Assembly (NCBI RefSeq): GCF_009930815.1
Contig: NZ_CP022222.1
Span: 1,654,501-1,718,500 of the forward strand
DNA length: 64,000 nucleotides
From: Bradyrhizobium sp. CCBAU 051011
Lineage (GTDB): Bacteria; Pseudomonadota; Alphaproteobacteria; Rhizobiales; Xanthobacteraceae
Direction of reading: 5' to 3'
Position numbers and translations under genes: made by a program
Notes under the pieces: generated by a model
Told to the model about the DNA's origin: nothing
The model's database searches: none
The model's input: only the letters and a program-made list of their open reading frames with translations
Part shown: in pieces, positions 27,754 to 41,056 of the stretch
Layout of the letters: the number at the start of each line of letters is the position of its first letter
How positions within the stretch are numbered: the first letter of the stretch is position 1

Positions 27754-27764
27754 CATGACTTATC

Positions 27765-27820
27765 CCGTGGTGATTTGAGCCGGCCGGCTTGCAGCCACGT
27801 TAAATAAATCGCTAAACAGG
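27765..27820 (+). ncRNA. SAM-II riboswitch
   Basis: The SAM-II (metA) aptamer layout is recognisable. P1 stem is CGTGG (27766-27770) with CCACG (27795-27799); the loop includes TGATTTG and CTTGCAG; the conserved 3' pseudoknot strand is TTAAATAAATCGCTAAA. SAM-II binds S-adenosylmethionine and in alphaproteobacteria is known upstream of metA and metZ-type genes, which matches the downstream gene here. Confidence 0.93.
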
Positions 27821-27838
27821 CCGGGGACACGTGTGATC

Positions 27839-34680: not shown

Positions 34681-35070
34681 GGATGGGCACCGCCAGATTC
34701 TCCGCAAACGCGTCACGGACCCAGCCGGCTCTCGCGCGACCAGGGTCGAGAACACTCGATAGCCACGGGTTGATCTTACCGATGAACCGAACACCAAAGC
34801 GGCGCGCAATGGGTCAAGGTTGTTGACAAGAGTCGCCGTGGTTAAGCTTCGCACTGCCAGGCGATGCTGAAGTAATATGACGGCGCTGGCATTGAAGTGG
34901 CTACTCAATGCCGCATTACAAGCCTCGTCAGAGCCTACGCGCTAAACAAACTGCAATTCTTCTCGCTAATCCGTAGATAGTCACTATATGTAAGATATCA
35001 CCGCGCGCCTCGGGCTGTTATCGGTGACTGAGAGCGTTGCGCTCCCGCCCTCAACCCAAAGGGCGATCAT
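34681..35070. other. 390 bases without a gene; leader motif at its end
   Basis: Between divergent small genes. Apart from the leader motif at 35020-35065 I see no ORF with a ribosome site, no tRNA and no inverted repeat. Base composition is lower in GC than the surrounding core. Confidence 0.5.
35020..35065 (+). promoter_or_regulatory. Conserved leader motif, copy A
   Basis: ATCGGTGACTGAGAG then CTCCCGCC (35042-35049), 21 bases before ATG 35071. CGCCCT (35046-35051) can pair with AGGGCG (35060-35065), which covers the ribosome binding site. Copies B and C lie at 38272 and 40636 before two other small genes. Confidence 0.6.
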
Positions 35071-35178
35071 ATGCCAAAACTCCCCGCATTCAATTTTCGT
35101 GAGTGGCTGGTACCCCCGGTATTGATGCCGATCTTTCTTGTGATGCTGGTCGCCGCTGCGATGGTCATTCAATGGTGA
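35071..35178 (+). CDS. 35-residue single-span membrane protein
   Basis: MPKLPAFNFREWLVPPVLMP followed by IFLVMLVAAAMVIQW: an amphipathic start then one transmembrane helix. AAGGGCG serves as ribosome site and is the arm of a possible leader hairpin. Its stop overlaps the next gene's ATG region (the reading frame at 35172 starts inside it). Similar proteins are, from memory, frequent in Bradyrhizobium. Confidence 0.62.
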   Translation: MPKLPAFNFREWLVPPVLMPIFLVMLVAAAMVIQW

Positions 35179-35405
35179 TCGAGCGTAGTGCGGCTTCACT
35201 GCAGGGCGGCCTATCTCCGATCAAACAAACCCAATCGTCGCTAGAACACGATCTGGACGCCAGGGCGGTAATCGCCCTGGACGAGGCTCGCGAGATGCCA
35301 GCGGGGGATGAGCGCACCGAGGCGATCCACAAAGCGATCGTCCTTCGAAATGCAGCGGATCTTCACAAACTTCTCTCCGGCAAGCGCGGCGCGCCCGGCA
35401 TATGA
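35172..35405 (+). CDS. Small helical hypothetical protein
   Basis: 77 residues from ATG 35172, which overlaps the previous stop (translational coupling). SLEHDLDARAVIALDEAREMPAGDERTEAIHKAIVLRNAADLHKLL is a two-helix charged segment. It resembles, in style, the protein at 40692-40916. Function unknown. Confidence 0.62.
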   Translation: MVIERSAASLQGGLSPIKQTQSSLEHDLDARAVIALDEAREMPAGDERTEAIHKAIVLRNAADLHKLLSGKRGAPGI

Positions 35406-35483
35406 CTGTGCGGCTTATCCCCGCAGGGTTGTCCCGGATCGAACGCCTGTCCCGATCGACAGCCGTTGCCCGCGAGCGCCTTC

Positions 35484-35870
35484 ATGATGGTACTTGACCA
35501 TTCATGCATTCCCGCTGTCGTTCTCATTGTCGAGGACGAGATGGTGCTCCGCATGCGCGTGGTCGACATGGTGGAAGACGCCGGATACACGCCACTCGAG
35601 GCGCTGAACGCCGCCGAAGCCGTCGCCATCCTGGAATCCCGATCCGACGTCGTGCTGATGTGCACCGATATCCAGATGCCAGGCCAAATGGATGGCGTCG
35701 GACTTGCGCATGCCGTGCATGATCGTTGGCCGACCATCAGGATCATCGTGGTATCGGGGCAATTGGACCTGCCGCACCTTGATCTTCCTCCCCGAAGCAG
35801 GTTTCTCGGCAAGCCGCTCAATGCCGGGGAAGTAATAGCCGAAATGCGCGACATGATCGGCTACGCCTGA
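35484..35870 (+). CDS. Single-domain response regulator receiver
   Basis: 128 residues, a CheY-like receiver with no output domain. VVLIVEDEMVLRMRVVDMVE gives the acidic pair; phospho-Asp lies in VLMCTDIQMPG; the switch Thr/Ser in VVSGQ and the Lys in FLGKPLN are present. It lies 87 bases before an HWE-type kinase gene, so the two probably act together. Start ATG 35484 or 35487. Confidence 0.9.
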   Translation: MMVLDHSCIPAVVLIVEDEMVLRMRVVDMVEDAGYTPLEALNAAEAVAILESRSDVVLMCTDIQMPGQMDGVGLAHAVHDRWPTIRIIVVSGQLDLPHLDLPPRSRFLGKPLNAGEVIAEMRDMIGYA

Positions 35871-35957
35871 GACGCCAGCAATTTGACGCCGAATACGGCC
35901 CAGATCGCGTGATTGCACACAAACCGAGTCACTGAAGATCAGCGCGGTACCCAGCTC

Positions 35958-36746
35958 ATGATGATACGATCAACGATATCTGAAGGTGATCTCCGGACGG
36001 AACCGCGTCCCGCAGCCCAACATCAAGACGAACTGGCAGCAGAAAATGTCAGCCTGCGGCTTCTGCTCGCGCAGGCTGAGATCAATGCGCAGAATTTGCT
36101 TGCCACGGCCGGCATCGACGCCAGAGAGCGCGAGGCGGCCGACAAGCTGCAGAAGCTAATCCTCGAGGAGTTGCACCACCGCATCAAGAATACGCTCGCA
36201 ACCGTCGGCGCCATCGTTTCGCAGAGCCTGCGCGACCTGCCCGAAGCCAGGCACGCGCAGCACGCCATTGAGGGCCGGCTGCTCGCGCTCGGGCGTGCGC
36301 ACGACCTGCTTTTGCAGGCAAGATGGACCAGCGCGAACCTTGGCACGATCGTCCGCAGCGCTACCGAAGCCTTCGATAATCCCGACGAGCCGAAGTTCTC
36401 GAGTTCGGGGCCCGATATCCGGATGACGTCTGGTGCCCTCATCGCCGTCGCGATGACACTGAACGAGCTTTGCACCAACACCACGAAATTTGGCGCCTTG
36501 TCGGTCCCGCAAGGGCGAGTCGACATTAACTGGACGCTGGATGAACAGGCGCAGCGCCTCCACCTCACATGGACCGAGAAGAACGGTGCGGCAGTGCACC
36601 CGCCCAAACAGCGTAGCTTTGGGACACGGCTGATCGAGACGCTCGGCAGGCAGCTCCGCGGCGAGGTGCGACTGACCTATGCGCCGACCGGTTTCGTCTA
36701 CGCACTCGACGTGCCGATGGCTTCTCTGACTTCAGCGGCCGCATAA
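35958..36746 (+). CDS. HWE/HisKA_2-type sensor histidine kinase
   Basis: 262 residues, soluble. N-terminal coiled coil (about residues 25-70), then the dimerisation/phospho-acceptor segment EELHHRIKNTLATV (His73/His74). The ATPase domain has LNELCTNTTKFGALS (N-box), WTEKNG and SFGTRLIE. No sensor or membrane domain, so input may come through the coiled coil. This kinase class typically feeds receivers such as PhyR partners in alphaproteobacterial stress signalling; the adjacent receiver is the obvious target (inference). Confidence 0.9.
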   Translation: MMIRSTISEGDLRTEPRPAAQHQDELAAENVSLRLLLAQAEINAQNLLATAGIDAREREAADKLQKLILEELHHRIKNTLATVGAIVSQSLRDLPEARHAQHAIEGRLLALGRAHDLLLQARWTSANLGTIVRSATEAFDNPDEPKFSSSGPDIRMTSGALIAVAMTLNELCTNTTKFGALSVPQGRVDINWTLDEQAQRLHLTWTEKNGAAVHPPKQRSFGTRLIETLGRQLRGEVRLTYAPTGFVYALDVPMASLTSAAA

Positions 36747-37104
36747 GCTTGGATTCGGGTATTGCGGAAGCCAAATCGTATTTGGGAAGAACGGCCCCAG
36801 CACGGGTGCGCACTGAGGCCGTCATTCATCGGATGCCAGGGGCATAGCATCCGGTCGCCCCCAATCAATCGATCTCGGCGACAACAGTTCCAAACTGTAT
36901 TCGTGTCAGGAACAGTTGCCAGCGATGAAGCCCGTCACGCGGCGCCACACCCACGGGCGCTAATGGGATCGTGTCCGTGACATATGATGTGGTGATTTGT
37001 CACCGGTGCTCGTTATTCGACCCTCCGATCCCCATATAAAGCCTATCCTCGTCAACCATCGAGCTTGGTCAGAATGCGCGGAGACTCCAACGAAAGGACC
37101 CGGC
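36747..37104. other. 358-base gap with no visible gene
   Basis: Short mixed-frame ORFs only, none with a ribosome site and protein-like composition. No inverted repeat or terminator with a T-run found after the kinase gene. Confidence 0.5.
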
Positions 37105-37605
37105 ATGTTCAGATCTCAGCAGCATCGTGAAAAGGCAGCCGTATACGGCGAATTGATCAAGCGTTCGAGTGATCAGCGCGAAAACGACGAACTTCACAAA
37201 CTAAGGGATCGCCACTCAGCGCTCGCGGATAACGAGCAGGGACTCGCCGATGACTACGACAGCGCCGTAAACGCAACCGGACAGAATCGCGTTCGCGGCC
37301 TGGCCCTTGCGGCCGAAGAGGAGCACATCTTGCGATGTCTCGGCGCAGCCATCATCATGCAATGGAACGCGCTGCCAAAGTCCATGCAACGGGAGATCTT
37401 TGACACCGCCGCATCGGTCGGCGAGGTATTGGAGACGGCGGCGCTTCGCGGGCAGATCGCCCGTTTTCTGCACAAGCATAAGGATTGTGCCGATCGCAAG
37501 AAGGCTTCGACGGAGGATGCGCATGGCGACGCGAAATCGCGCGCCGCGGCGCTGTCGCGATGGGACGATGAGGGAGGCGCAGTCCCCGACGGACTGCCGA
37601 GGTGA
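37105..37605 (+). CDS. Charged helical hypothetical protein with SRWDDEGGA tail
   Basis: 166 residues. N-terminal helical part (HREKAAVYGELIKRSSDQREND), a middle segment (MQWNALPKSMQREIFDTAAS), then a linker and the tail DAKSRAAALSRWDDEGGA. The tail is repeated in frame in the ORF at 40937-41056 with high DNA identity. GAAAGGACC precedes ATG 37105. No family known to me. Confidence 0.72.
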   Translation: MFRSQQHREKAAVYGELIKRSSDQRENDELHKLRDRHSALADNEQGLADDYDSAVNATGQNRVRGLALAAEEEHILRCLGAAIIMQWNALPKSMQREIFDTAASVGEVLETAALRGQIARFLHKHKDCADRKKASTEDAHGDAKSRAAALSRWDDEGGAVPDGLPR

Positions 37606-37632
37606 CCCCATTTCGGCAACGGAAGGATAGCC

Positions 37633-37890
37633 ATGTCACTTACAGAAAAGCAGAGAACGTGTGTCGGTCCGATGAGCACTCAGACGAGTCAGCACCTCAC
37701 GATTTGTGCGGCGCTTCCTCTAATGCCCACAGCAGGAGAGCATTGCGACACTTCAACAATCCGAAAACAAACAAATAGAAATGACGCCGTGCGCGCTGCG
37801 AAAGCAGAGATAAGTCGGCGCCGATCACTCAAGAAACAGCGCGAGGAGCAAACGGCTCATCTCTATTTTCGAGAATCCAGTTCACGATAA
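37633..37890 (+). CDS. Doubtful small ORF downstream of 37105 gene
   Basis: 85 residues with a GGAAGGATAG ribosome site. Its first codons (ATGTCACTTACAGAAAAG) resemble those inside the gene at 41085 (ATGTCACTGACAAAATTC), consistent with a duplicated junction. The rest has a basic C-terminal helix but does not look like any known protein. Could be a decayed copy. Confidence 0.35.
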   Translation: MSLTEKQRTCVGPMSTQTSQHLTICAALPLMPTAGEHCDTSTIRKQTNRNDAVRAAKAEISRRRSLKKQREEQTAHLYFRESSSR

Positions 37891-38063
37891 AGGGTTCGCA
37901 AATATGATAGGCCTTCCACGGTCAGACGATGCTCGTCTCGTTCTCCTTCGATATACCTTTTCATAAGATGCTTGGACAGCTGCTCCCGCACACCTTGCAG
38001 CTCGGCGCGATCGGCGAGGGCCCCATAAATATTCAGCGCGCGGTCAACTGGCAGTATGTTCAT
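37863..38063 (-). CDS. Small hypothetical protein, 66 residues
   Basis: NIYGALADRAELQGVREQLS then KRYIEGERDEHRLTVEGLSYLRTLYRELD: an all-helical charged protein that looks like a compact winged-helix or coiled-coil unit. AGAGGA lies five bases before the ATG. Overlaps the end of the doubtful ORF 37633-37890 on the other strand. Confidence 0.68.
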   Translation of the reverse strand: MNILPVDRALNIYGALADRAELQGVREQLSKHLMKRYIEGERDEHRLTVEGLSYLRTLYRELDSRK

Positions 38064-38208
38064 CGGATTCCTCTAGGATATTTGGGCATTCAAGTAACGG
38101 GATGCTCAATCGTTCCCAAAATAGACGCTTAACGCCGCAACTTCTGTTGTCCTGATGTGACCTTAACGCGGCATGGATCGCCTTCCCGCCCAAGGCATCC
38201 TTCAATAG

Positions 38209-38224
38209 TGGTCAATATTGACCA
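38209..38224. promoter_or_regulatory. 16-base perfect palindrome TGGTCAATATTGACCA
   Basis: An operator-like palindrome 97 bases before the zinc-ribbon start. The half-site ATTGACCA recurs as AATTGACCAG at 39874 and 40338 and as AATTGAACAG at 39922, all upstream of small genes in this region. Confidence 0.55.
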
Positions 38225-38271
38225 GCCCCGCATTGGTGTTTGGGGTAAGACAGGCTCCGCCCGAATGGGCA

Positions 38272-38304
38272 ATCGGCGACAGAGAGATCGATAATGCTCC
38301 CGCC
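38272..38304 (+). promoter_or_regulatory. Conserved leader motif, copy B
   Basis: ATCGGCGACAGAGAG then CTCCCGCC, 16 bases before ATG 38321. The hairpin over the GAGGGA ribosome site is weaker here than in copies A and C (only CCC/GGG). Confidence 0.55.
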
Positions 38305-38320
38305 CAAATACGAGGGAAGC

Positions 38321-38503
38321 ATGATGTCATCTATCCAACCAAACCCATTATACAGCCGCGCGGAAATCGGAATTCTTCCGTGTTCCAAGTGCGGCAAGCC
38401 TATGCGGTTGGCTTGCATCGAGCCTGCTCGACCCGGTCATGAAGTCCGCACCTTCGAGTGCCCGGAATGCAAGACGACTGGGAGTTTTGCGGTCGCGATC
38501 TAG
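38321..38503 (+). CDS. Zinc-ribbon microprotein 1
   Basis: 60 residues. Two CxxC pairs, CSKCGK and CPECKT, 28 residues apart: a rubredoxin/zinc-ribbon knuckle pair. Ribosome site GAGGGA. An in-frame ATG at 38294 lies inside the conserved leader motif, so 38321 is preferred. Related to the protein at 40011-40229 (shared CxxC, RTFEC segment). Could be a small redox or nucleic-acid-binding protein. Confidence 0.7.
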   Translation: MMSSIQPNPLYSRAEIGILPCSKCGKPMRLACIEPARPGHEVRTFECPECKTTGSFAVAI

Positions 38504-38759
38504 CCGCGACTAGTCCAGTTTTGCGACCTGTTGGGTCCGGATCTGGCTTCGCTTTTTGTTGACCGCTCCATTGGTTATCCGCACCGAATGCTCTTCGGCC
38601 GCTTGATCTCACATGCCATTTCCATGAAGCGCGAGATTGCTCAGGGCGGGGCTCCCTGTTCCATGCTGCTGCGAAAAGCCCCGGCGTGCGGCACTTTTAC
38701 TTCAAACGCCGCCGGCGTGAATGGTAAGGTAGACATCCCACTGCGGGACGAAACGGGAC

Positions 38760-39440
38760 ATGCCAAACAATACCAACCAAGCAATATTTGATCCCAAGGA
38801 ATTTCTCGCCAAGGTCGGCGAAGGGAAGACCATCCTTGAATTTCGCAAGGACGAGATCGTCTTTGCGCAGGGCGACGTGGCAGATACGGTCTTCTACATT
38901 CAAAAAGGCCGGGTCAAGGTTGTCGTCATATCCGAGCAGGGCAAGGAAGCCGTGGTCGGCATTTTGGAGCCGGGCCAGTTCTTTGGCGAAGGCTGCATGA
39001 ACGGCCATTCGCTGCGTATCGCCACGGCGACGGCGCTGGAGGAGTGCCTGGTCACCGCGATAACGAAGACGGCCATGCTTGCGGCACTACACGATCAACC
39101 AAAGTTTTCCGAGTTGTTCATGACTTATCTGCTGACCCGCAATAGCCGGATTGAAGAGGATCTGATCGACCAGCTCTTCAACTCCAGTGAGAAACGGCTG
39201 GCGCGCCTGCTGCTCCTGCTGGCGAATTTCGGCAAGGAGGGCAGCCCTCAGCCGATCAGTCCGGGTATTAGCCAGGAAACATTGGCCGAAATGATTGGAA
39301 CGACGCGATCCCGCGTCAGCTTCTTCATGAACAAATTCCGCAAGCTTGGCTTCATCAGCTACAACGGGAAAATCGAGGTCAACAGTTCATTGCTGAACGC
39401 GGTCTTGTACGACAAGCCCGAGATCAAGCGCGAGCCCTGA
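38760..39440 (+). CDS. Crp/Fnr family transcriptional regulator
   Basis: 226 residues. Cyclic-nucleotide-type jelly roll (GKTILEFRKDEIVFAQGDVADTVFYIQKGRVKV, GILEPGQFFGEGCM), long dimer helix, and a C-terminal winged helix (ISQETLAEMIGTTRSRVSFFMNKFRKLGFI). No Cys cluster of FNR/FixK type, so not an oxygen Fe-S sensor. Possibly the regulator of the adjacent small stress genes (inference). Confidence 0.93.
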   Translation: MPNNTNQAIFDPKEFLAKVGEGKTILEFRKDEIVFAQGDVADTVFYIQKGRVKVVVISEQGKEAVVGILEPGQFFGEGCMNGHSLRIATATALEECLVTAITKTAMLAALHDQPKFSELFMTYLLTRNSRIEEDLIDQLFNSSEKRLARLLLLLANFGKEGSPQPISPGISQETLAEMIGTTRSRVSFFMNKFRKLGFISYNGKIEVNSSLLNAVLYDKPEIKREP

Positions 39441-39516
39441 GCTGATATCTCGTCGCGTCATCGATCGCCACTTCTGTTGCGGAACCAGACCTCGCCCGGC
39501 GCGAGCGGCGTCGTAT

Positions 39517-39810
39517 CTATCGACGCCACCAGCTCCTTTGCCACCCCCATCCGCCGCCTCGAACGAGGCGCACGATGAACAGGAGCAGTACGGCACCGAT
39601 TGTGGCGTTGACGATTGCGCTGATCAATCCGGTCCCGACATGGATCCCGAGTTGTGGCAGCAACCAGCTTCCAATAAAGGCACCCAGGATTCCGACGACA
39701 AGGTCGCCGATGAGTCCGAAGCCGGTCCCTTGCACGATCTGGCCGGCGAGCCAGCCGGCAACGAGGCCAACAAACAATATGACCAACAGGCTTTCGCTCG
39801 ACATGTGCAT
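39517..39810 (-). CDS. GlsB/YeaQ/YmgE family membrane protein
   Basis: 97 residues, three transmembrane helices: LLVILFVGLVAGWLAGQIV, GLIGDLVVGILGAFIGSWLLP, AIVNATIGAVLLLFIV. This is the transglycosylase-associated small membrane family, commonly induced by stress. Function unknown. ATG 39810 or 39804. Confidence 0.88.
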   Translation of the reverse strand: MHMSSESLLVILFVGLVAGWLAGQIVQGTGFGLIGDLVVGILGAFIGSWLLPQLGIHVGTGLISAIVNATIGAVLLLFIVRLVRGGGWGWQRSWWRR

Positions 39811-39914
39811 TTGGTGACCTCGCGGTTTGCCCGAGAGGAAGCATCACCAACTGGCTTGCTGCTGTCTGTATCGAATTGACCAGTCGGCTGCACGGCGCCT
39901 AAATTTTTTGGGAA

Positions 39915-39931
39915 TGAGCAAAATTGAACAG
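39915..39931 (+). promoter_or_regulatory. Shared upstream motif TGAGCAAAATTGAACAG
   Basis: 17 bases, 15 of them identical to TGAGCAGAATTGACCAG at 40331-40347. Stands 80 bases before the second zinc-ribbon gene; the other copy stands upstream of the gene at 40692. Confidence 0.5.
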
Positions 39932-40010
39932 TGGGGTCAGTCCGACTTGCGCCATGCTGGTTCAATCACCCTGTCAACGGCGTCCACCGGAAATCGCAAG
40001 GGAATGCACC

Positions 40011-40229
40011 ATGCCAGAACTACATACGCGCCCCGAGCCTTGCCTGCTTCCGATCCGCCGGCCCGGATGTCCGAAATGCGAAAGCCGCATGATGCTGGCG
40101 GCGATTATGCCTGGCCTGGAAGGCTTTGAGCTGCGCACCTTTGAATGCAGGAAATGCGACCACAGCTTCACCGACGCGGTCGCCAAGGACCCGATGAGGT
40201 CTCAGCCCGCTGCATTGCCGGCGGGTTGA
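40011..40229 (+). CDS. Zinc-ribbon microprotein 2
   Basis: 72 residues. CPKCES and CRKCDH form a CxxC/CxxC zinc ribbon; FELRTFECRKC parallels HEVRTFECPEC in the protein at 38321. AAGGGA lies ten bases before ATG 40011. A paralogue of the first microprotein, placed on the other side of the Crp/Fnr gene. Confidence 0.72.
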   Translation: MPELHTRPEPCLLPIRRPGCPKCESRMMLAAIMPGLEGFELRTFECRKCDHSFTDAVAKDPMRSQPAALPAG

Positions 40230-40691
40230 AGCCGCCGACCTAGACGCCGTCCACTGGGGGCGCGCCTTGCAGCGCCCACTCATCTCACGGCCGCGCTGAC
40301 ATGCGCTCCGGTTCATTAATTTTTCGAAAGTGAGCAGAATTGACCAGCGGCGGGAGAGCAGGAGGCCGATGGTGTTCCTCGTGACGTGGCAGAGAACCTT
40401 GCCGAAACGGCTGTGGCCGAGGAGTTATAATTCGAAACCATTTGGCTTCGTGCCTGCACGGTCATCCTAAACGGCACACCCGGCAAAGCCGATCCAGTTA
40501 GCTTTGGGGCGGGCCAACCGCTTGTGGCAGATGTCCAAGTCCTCGAATTAAATTCAGACTGTATGCACTAGTGCTCTTATATTCGATGGACAGGATACCC
40601 ATCTTCATATCATCGCCGCCCCTTACGTGGTATCTATCGGCGACTGAGAGACAGTTGCGCTCCCGCCTTACGCGAAAGAGGGCGCAGAGCG
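40230..40691. other. 460-base gap with two regulatory motifs
   Basis: Contains TGAGCAGAATTGACCAG at 40331-40347 and leader motif C at its end. An acidic peptide-like frame ending near 40430 (reading DVAENLAETAVAEEL) has no start codon and may be a gene remnant. Nothing else is recognisable. Confidence 0.5.
40636..40684 (+). promoter_or_regulatory. Conserved leader motif, copy C
   Basis: ATCGGCGACTGAGAG then CTCCCGCC (40660-40667). CGCCTT (40664-40669) pairs with AGGGCG (40679-40684), with one U-G wobble relative to copy A, again covering the ribosome binding site, seven bases before ATG 40692. Confidence 0.6.
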
Positions 40692-40916
40692 ATGCAGAAC
40701 CGACGACACCGGTCCACACAGTACCGATACCGTTTCGCAAAGACGCAGCCTCTTGAAGAGCGGCTAATTGAACACGCAACGCGGCTGCGTGATGAAGCCA
40801 AATCGCTTCCGCCTGGTGTCGTGCGCGAGGCGATTCTAAGGCGGGCTGGGCAGGCGGAAGCTGGCGCGCACATGAGCCAGTGGCTACGCTCGCCTGATTC
40901 AAAGAGTAACGCGTAA
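40692..40916 (+). CDS. Small basic helical protein
   Basis: 74 residues: EERLIEHATRLRDEAKSLPPGVVREAILRRAGQAEAGAHMSQWLRSP. I recognise this LR-EA-LPPG-RE-LLR-A-Q-E-A-HMSEWL pattern from many small Bradyrhizobium proteins, which suggests a real family without assigned role. Preceded by leader motif C. Confidence 0.72.
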   Translation: MQNRRHRSTQYRYRFAKTQPLEERLIEHATRLRDEAKSLPPGVVREAILRRAGQAEAGAHMSQWLRSPDSKSNA

Positions 40917-40936: not shown

Positions 40937-41056
40937 ATGCCGGCCCACAAGACGGCTTCGAGTGAGGATGCGCATGGCGACGCCAAATCGCGCGCCGCGG
41001 CTCTGTCGCGATGGCACGACGAGGGAGGCGCAGACCCCGGCGGACTGCCGCGGTGA
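40937..41056 (+). CDS. 39-residue ORF made of the SRWxDEGGA tail module
   Basis: Reads MPAHKTASSEDAHGDAKSRA and on through ALSRWHDEGGADPGGLPR. It is the C-terminal tail of the 37105-37605 protein, with about 88 percent DNA identity over 105 bases. No strong ribosome site. Either a gene remnant or an independent mini-protein that uses the same tail. Confidence 0.5.
   Translation: MPAHKTASSEDAHGDAKSRAAALSRWHDEGGADPGGLPR

What the first reader, a model, noticed from the sequence alone, without database searches (positions are those of the whole stretch)
35020..40684. A leader motif shared by three small orphan genes that may hide the ribosome binding site
Directly seen: ATCGGYGACWGAGAG followed after 7-10 bases by CTCCCGCC occurs at 35020-35049, 38272-38304 and 40636-40667. 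Each copy ends 16-24 bases before the ATG of a non-homologous small gene (a 35-residue membrane protein, a zinc-ribbon protein, a 74-residue helical protein). In copies A and C, CGCCCT or CGCCTT can pair with AGGGCG at the ribosome site; the C-to-T change keeps pairing as U-G. Inference: a thermometer-like or ligand/protein-binding translational control element for a set of stress microproteins. I know of no described element with this sequence.
Basis: partly seen in the sequence, partly recalled or inferred. Interest (0 to 1): 0.8.

Follow-up and report, generated by a model that had tools for sequence, protein, structure and literature searches.

The report
Shared RNA switch before small genes
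The three short repeats are copies of a structured RNA leader, apparently undescribed, found in several orders of Alphaproteobacteria just ahead of many different small-protein and regulator genes, whose translation it probably controls.

Summary
The genome (Bradyrhizobium by similarity) has 9 exact copies of the core (reversed control: 1) and about 25 by covariance model. 58 of 59 sampled genus-mates and 31 of 47 family genera match; copies also occur in four other alphaproteobacterial orders. The structure covaries (score: 0/500 shuffles, two alignments), and P1 mismatches are G-U rather than A-C, 116 cells to 5, so selection acts on RNA. A -10 box puts the predicted start at that A; leaders are 77 nt at the median. 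The octamer CUCCCGCC (exact in 174 of 196) lies 14-31 nt before a start codon in 147 of 158 copies and can pair with the Shine-Dalgarno (SD) region. Alternatively CUC can pair with GAG (P2), and GCC with a P1-loop GGC (pseudoknot: two compensations, several breaks). Twenty protein families follow it, including Crp/Fnr regulators and PAS/HisKA_2 kinases. No Rfam match. Best reading: a translational switch, riboswitch-like or protein-bound, signal unknown. A ROSE thermometer is not supported; evidence for the switch itself is indirect.

The parts
34985..34990 (+). Copy A predicted -10 box (TATATG)
   Evidence: Position logo over 158 copies: T/A/T at -12/-11/-10 and T at -7 relative to the A of ATCACCG; CACTAT conserved in three Bradyrhizobium orthologous stretches
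34997..35003 (+). Copy A predicted start of transcript (A 34997) and P1 5' strand UCACCG (34998-35003)
   Evidence: R2 match 34994-35053, E 5.1e-16; covariation
35022..35027 (+). Copy A P1 3' strand CGGUGA
35030..35034 (+). Copy A GAGAG, proposed 5' strand of P2
   Evidence: Conserved; pairing with CUC rests mainly on conservation
35042..35049 (+). Copy A octamer CUCCCGCC
35060..35065 (+). Copy A ribosome-binding region AGGGCG, complementary to CGCCCU
   Evidence: Sequence; paired in the minimum-energy fold
35071..35178 (+). Gene A, 35-aa predicted membrane microprotein (EWLVPP group)
   Evidence: ORF; in a 41-member group behind the element; no Pfam family above cut-off
38177..38182 (+). Copy B possible P1 5' strand (AUCGCC), separated by an insertion of about 70 nt
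   Evidence: R2 match 38174-38308, E 2.8e-8; alternative: UCCGCC at 38256-38261 (read)
38209..38224 (+). Palindrome TGGTCAATATTGACCA, possible transcription-factor site of copy B's promoter
   Evidence: Related sites lie about -50 to -35 before other copies
38274..38279 (+). Copy B P1 3' strand CGGCGA
38282..38286 (+). Copy B GAGAG
38297..38304 (+). Copy B octamer CUCCCGCC
38321..38503 (+). Gene B, 60-aa zinc-ribbon-like protein
   Evidence: ORF; in a 53-member group behind the element; zinc-ribbon matches all below cut-off
40612..40618 (+). Copy C predicted transcript start (A 40612) and P1 5' strand UCGCCG (40613-40618)
   Evidence: R2 match 40609-40671, E 1.5e-18; compensatory to CGGCGA
40638..40643 (+). 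Copy C P1 3' strand CGGCGA
40646..40650 (+). Copy C GAGAG
40660..40667 (+). Copy C octamer CUCCCGCC
40679..40684 (+). Copy C ribosome-binding region AGGGCG
40692..40916 (+). Gene C, 74-aa basic protein (group of about 66-aa proteins ending EWLxSPGLQxP)
   Evidence: ORF; in a 60-member group behind the element; no Pfam family above cut-off

Best explanation
Each copy is a cis-acting structured mRNA leader (median 77 nt) that controls translation of the next gene. Shown by computation: conserved hairpin P1, selected as RNA; a fixed place between a -10 box and the start codon; conserved GAGAG and CUCCCGCC; SD regions that can pair with the octamer region more strongly than control windows. Inferred: in the OFF state the octamer region (NGCGCUCCCGCC) pairs with the SD. 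In the ON state a compact fold holds the octamer away from the SD, CUC on GAG (P2) and GCC on GGC of the P1 loop (pseudoknot). A bound small molecule, ion or protein would tip the balance. The signal is unknown; a small-molecule riboswitch is somewhat favoured because the unpaired core is kept across orders while the downstream genes differ.
For: P1: 6 of 6 pairs with two-sided changes and 98.6% of cells paired in 110 distinct rows; in 103 rows from the family and other orders 98.4% of cells, 5 of 6 pairs, 43 two-sided cells against 9.9 (sd 2.5) in shuffles. The covariation score of the whole structure (P1+P2) is reached by 0/500 shuffles in both. Non-Watson-Crick P1 cells: G-U 116, A-C 5 (cells, not independent events). 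Start codon 14-31 nt after the octamer in 147 of 158 copies; ATG ORF of 45 aa or more in 104 of 158, against 8 and 12 of 158 in two controls. -10 logo; TA...T at -12 in 36 of 156, against 0-3 at ten other offsets. Octamer-region/SD duplex -13.4 kcal/mol on average over 177 copies, against -10.7 with 62 SD windows of other genes and -9.7 with shuffled windows. Pseudoknot compensations L164 (GGU/ACC) and L226 (GAC/GUC). Different promoter motifs before different gene groups but the same leader. 20 multi-member protein groups behind it.
Against: P2 hardly varies: the first GAG fits 98.2% of cells without any two-sided change, the second 90.2% with three. At the fixed position the pseudoknot does not fit in 28 of 115 class I and 5 of 35 class II copies (at least 11 and 4 of them look shifted by one base); class III was partly defined by its GG, so its 46 of 46 is circular. 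Swapping SD windows within a class gives almost the same duplex energy: 7 of 300 shuffles reach it overall, 104 of 300 in class I. With the bare octamer, element SDs pair only slightly better than controls (-7.6 against -6.9), pair much better with the 16S anti-SD (-7.7 against -5.5), and are relatively less biased to the octamer than controls are: strong SDs explain part of the complementarity. Folding gives SD:anti-SD above 0.5 in 73 of 178 and P2 above 0.5 in 31 of 178. Single-sequence folds of A, B and C are 1-2 sd better than shuffles and do not show P1, although A shows it with other boundaries. In A, P2 and the SD helix can coexist. No expression or binding data.
Confidence: 0.6

Rival explanations
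1. Protein-bound leader: one RNA-binding protein recognises GAGAG/CUCCCGCC next to P1 and represses or activates all these mRNAs, much as CsrA does for its targets (recalled); the protein sets the regulon.
For: One conserved core before 20 protein groups, without an evident common pathway, fits a global regulator.
Against: No candidate protein was identified or sought. A pseudoknot and an SD-complementary octamer are more than a binding site needs.
Confidence: 0.25
2. Conserved translation or stability element without a switch: P1 and core protect the 5' end or tune initiation at a constant level.
For: The two-state behaviour is not supported by energies or by SD co-change.
Against: The near-invariant core next to P1 and its SD complementarity are more than a protective hairpin needs.
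Confidence: 0.08
3. RNA thermometer: the SD helix melts on warming.
For: SD complementarity; ROSE thermometers are known in Bradyrhizobium (PMC11342760, passages seen).
Against: U(U/C)GCU in 2 of 202 copies; predicted SD pairing 0.52 at 28 C and 0.51 at 45 C; a simple thermometer needs no conserved P1 or core; no Rfam match at the element.
Confidence: 0.04
4. DNA repeat (REP or miniature transposon) or DNA operator, with no RNA role.
For: Up to 38 copies per genome.
Against: G-U kept over A-C; fixed place between -10 box and start codon; no Br-REP1 consensus in the window with up to 3 mismatches, none of three Br-REP1-derived strings near 202 copies.
Confidence: 0.03

Closest known systems
Translational riboswitches of Alphaproteobacteria, such as SAM-II (SAM_alpha, RF00521)
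   Same: Compact leader just before the start codon; pseudoknot and SD control (SAM-II architecture recalled). One lies in this window at 27757-27836
   Different: No Rfam match at the element; different genes follow; no ligand known
ROSE RNA thermometers
   Same: SD held by a complementary strand; known in Bradyrhizobium (PMC11342760, passages)
   Different: U(U/C)GCU missing in 200 of 202 copies; conserved P1 and GAGAG core; predicted pairing not temperature-sensitive
Br-REP1 and Br-REP2 (PMC5082802)
   Same: Dispersed, structured elements of Bradyrhizobium
   Different: Different consensus, described in 3' UTRs (abstract and passages)
CsrA/RsmA-type leaders (recalled)
   Same: One short motif before many unrelated genes
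   Different: Conserved core is not a GGA loop; no protein identified

Membership tests
Riboswitch | Lies in the 5' UTR of the mRNA it controls | tested here: met
   By prediction: start at the A of P1 and start codon 14-31 nt after the octamer in 147 of 158 copies; no mapped transcripts seen
Riboswitch | Conserved secondary structure shown by covariation | tested here: met
   P1; P2 and pseudoknot only partly
Riboswitch | Alternative pairing that exposes or hides the SD | tested here: inconclusive
   SD complementarity above controls, but weak co-change, partly explained by strong SDs, and no energy support for two states
Riboswitch | Direct binding of a small molecule or ion | not testable with these tools
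   Needs in-line probing
ROSE RNA thermometer | U(U/C)GCU opposite the SD | tested here: not met
   2 of 202 copies, in the 26 nt ending at the octamer
ROSE RNA thermometer | SD helix melts in the physiological range | tested here: not met
   Prediction only: mean pairing 0.52 to 0.51 from 28 to 45 C over 178 leaders
Any family of Rfam 15 | Covariance-model match at the element | tested here: not met
   No match at the element: window at gathering score; window 34900-40800, 9 loci and 14 loci at E-value thresholds 5, 1 and 0.5
Br-REP1 | CCGGAATCTCGAGATTCCGG | tested here: not met
   0 in window with up to 3 mismatches; none of three derived strings near 202 copies

The most novel reading that the evidence does not exclude
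An undescribed class of alphaproteobacterial riboswitch that senses a common physiological signal, perhaps a signalling nucleotide or ion, and through one pseudoknotted leader switches a large regulon of microproteins, Crp/Fnr regulators and sensor kinases.
Probability: 0.37. Interest if true: 0.92.

Novelty: new variant of a known kind. Interest (0 to 1): 0.8.

Why it matters
If right, this is a structured cis-regulatory RNA present in several alphaproteobacterial orders, in up to 38 copies per genome, without an Rfam family. It would tie many short proteins of unknown function, together with transcription regulators and kinases, into one post-transcriptional regulon. The signal it reads could be sought by standard probing, and would give a first common function for these proteins. 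In Bradyrhizobium, nitrogen-fixing plant symbionts, it may affect how cells adapt to soil and nodule.

Tried and rejected
DNA repeat or operator: rejected on G-U/A-C asymmetry and placement. ROSE thermometer: rejected as ROSE; a thermometer in general is made unlikely by prediction only. EcfG-type promoter (GGAAC/CGTT, recalled): not visible in the upstream logo, which shows a TATNNT-like -10 box. Known RNA families: none at the element; L412 has a sub-threshold cspA thermoregulator match (36.5 bits, cut-off 78, E 5.6e-6) outside the element.

Literature: no paper describing the element was found in searches, nor in a letter search (850 papers hold one of the short strings; the 20 listed are, by title, on other subjects). 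Seen: PMC5082802, abstract and passages; PMC4842269 and PMC11342760, passages; PMC8632094, one passage; PMC11109978, word counts only, all zero for six alphaproteobacterial and gene terms. Supplements were not read. The library lacks most subscription papers, including one on an extended-SD small mRNA of Bradyrhizobium that I recall but that was not in the listing.

Weak or contrary results: single-sequence folds. In one search a third constraint was mis-specified and its 'no-upstream-octamer' lines are discarded. The first random test of P1 (22 of 34 variant pairs fully paired, 17.7 expected, maximum 24) is not significant, because G-U is allowed and the consensus dominates; 165 of 187 parsed copies pair in all six positions. 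SD co-change within class is weak. One search went against an octamer-specific SD bias. Control gene starts are rough (first ATG with an SD-like word). Of 201 copies, 14 were unparsed and 5, and left out of those counts. Three non-alphaproteobacterial hits (L401-L403) and one class hit (L388) look like false positives on inspection, so E below 1e-4 is not error-free.
Full report
WHAT IS THERE. Its core, GACWGAGAG-N5-15-CTCCCGCC, occurs 9 times in the 9,099,371-base genome; the reversed pattern occurs once. Reading upstream of the nine showed a second conserved strand, TCACCG, before CGGTGA in most of them. A covariance model of seven copies (R1) finds 27 places at E up to 1 in the own genome: 24 at E below 1e-3, copy B at 0.007 and two weaker ones that look like chance.

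HOW WIDE. R1 matches at E up to 0.01 in 58 of 59 other genomes of the genus, with 2-38 copies, and in 10 of 40 genomes of other families of the order, there weakly (E 3e-4 to 8e-3). A broader model R2 (129 rows) matches at E up to 1e-4 in 163 of 296 genomes and 31 of 47 genera of the family, own genus included, in 13 of 385 genomes drawn from the class (two are this genus, and one hit, L388, looks false) and in 21 of 398 from the phylum (3 non-alphaproteobacterial hits look false). In these large searches only 13-18 candidates per genome were scored, so real counts may be higher. NCBI places Sphingobium in Sphingomonadales, Skermanella in Rhodospirillales, Rubellimicrobium in Rhodobacterales and the Pseudoroseomonas species in Acetobacterales. 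Two hits in genomes labelled Acidobacteriaceae and Armatimonadetes may be misbinned contigs.

STRUCTURE. In alignment A3 (110 distinct rows) P1 pairs in 98.6% of cells and all six pairs show changes on both sides; sliding the partner drops the whole structure to 33-66% paired. In A4 (103 distinct rows from the family and other orders) P1 pairs in 98.4% of cells, five of six pairs have two-sided changes, and there are 43 two-sided cells against 9.9, sd 2.5, in shuffles; slides give 27-72%. The covariation score of the whole structure is reached by 0/500 shuffles in both; the number of pairs with two-sided changes in A4 is reached by 77/500. Both alignments were fitted to the structure by the model, which favours it. 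Copies read by eye show P1 strands such as TCGACG/CGTCGA (L414), TCGGCG/CGCCGA (L226, L386, L415) and CCATCGC/GCGATGG (L380). Non-Watson-Crick P1 cells are G-U 116 times, A-C 5 times and other 14 times, which fits RNA pairing on this strand rather than a DNA site.

THE CORE. The octamer is exactly CTCCCGCC in 174 of 196 parsed copies. Pairing of the first GAG with CUC fits 98.2% of cells but shows no two-sided change; the second GAG fits 90.2%. GGC in the P1 loop can pair with GCC of the octamer: 87 of 115 (class I), 30 of 35 (class II), 46 of 46 (class III, partly circular because GG was used to define it). Two copies changed both sides (L164 GGU/ACC, L226 GAC/GUC); several in-register copies break it, such as L033, L095, L105, L109 and L238. 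I treat the pseudoknot as likely, not shown.

POSITION AND TRANSCRIPT. Of 158 distinct copies fetched from the genus, 152 have an ORF of at least 28 aa starting 8-55 nt after the octamer, 147 of them at 14-31 nt. An ATG ORF of at least 45 aa follows in 104 of 158, against 8 (opposite strand) and 12 (60 nt upstream) of 158. The ORF was chosen with a score that favours SD-like words and ATG, so the distances are somewhat biased; the 104-against-8-and-12 count is not. Upstream, a -10 logo lies at -12 to -7 from the A of ATCACCG (TA...T there in 36 of 156), so that A is the predicted transcript start; the A-to-start length is 77 nt at the median over 152 copies. CTCGCTA lies near -35 in 24 of 156 regions, 21 of them before 32-35-aa-type membrane genes; TGAGCAATATTGACC-like sites near -42 match in 25, before other gene groups. 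The leader is thus shared while promoters differ.

GENES. 342 distinct elements (158 genus, 44 family, the rest) gave 321 ORFs: 20 groups of two or more and 34 singletons by single-linkage BLAST, so groups are loose and a few ORFs may be wrong. Largest: 60 (gene C group), 53 (zinc-ribbon-like, gene B), 41 (32-35-aa membrane, gene A), 25 (TFLGRK), 23 (DUF6894; Pfam confirms three members) and 20 Crp/Fnr-like (two members searched, both with HTH_Crp_2 and cNMP_binding). In sphingomonads two sensor kinases with HisKA_2 and PAS_4 follow (L261, L295; HWE_HK just below its cut-off). In the window, a Crp/Fnr gene (38760-39440), an HWE kinase (35913-36746) and a response regulator (35466-35870) lie between the copies. 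I saw no leader before that Crp gene; a Crp/Fnr gene of Reyranella (L264) that resembles it has one.

MECHANISM. The octamer region with 7 flanking bases pairs with the SD window better than with control windows (mean -13.4, -10.7, -9.7 kcal/mol), but the bare octamer hardly better (-7.6 against -6.9), and element SDs are strong in general. SD words differ by gene group: GGCG in 18 of 30 of the membrane group against 2 of 39 and 6 of 32 in the two largest, GGGAG in 0 of 30 against 11 of 39 and 12 of 32; both words complement part of the octamer. Within classes, swapping SD windows makes little difference. Folding puts the SD in the anti-SD helix with mean probability 0.52 and CUC with the upstream arm at 0.18, almost unchanged from 28 to 45 C. 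From this I infer a default-OFF leader opened by something that stabilises P1, P2 and the loop contact. In A, P2 and the SD helix can coexist, so there the loop contact would have to do the opening. The signal is unknown.

NOVELTY. No Rfam 15 family matches at the element, and the searches named in Tried and rejected found no description. I class it as a new sort of leader within the known kind of structured translational control RNAs.

Noticed in passing
window 27757-27836 (+): SAM-II (SAM_alpha) riboswitch, 87.9 bits.
   Followed up: no
window 39960-40229 (+): A further zinc-ribbon-like gene (start near 40011) whose upstream region looks like a decayed copy of the element: ATCACC and GGC remain, GAGAG and the octamer are gone (read).
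   Followed up: no
window 37500-37605 and 40950-41056 (+): Two similar stretches (EDAHGDAKSRAAALSRW) suggest a partial duplication of a small gene near copy C (read).
   Followed up: no
window 38209-38224 and upstream of other copies: Palindrome TGGTCAATATTGACCA and variants near -42 of the predicted start; looks like a transcription-factor site.
   Followed up: partly
L363-L377: 15 viral contigs carry the exact motif; 12 of 15 show an ORF of 35-101 aa behind it. Whether they are true phage genes or host flanks was not tested.
   Followed up: partly
own genome, 5.340-5.347 Mb and 5.986-5.999 Mb: Copies cluster, on both strands: four in the first stretch and five in the second.
   Followed up: no
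L412:1-303 (-): Sub-threshold cspA thermoregulator match (E 5.6e-6) near an element copy.
   Followed up: no
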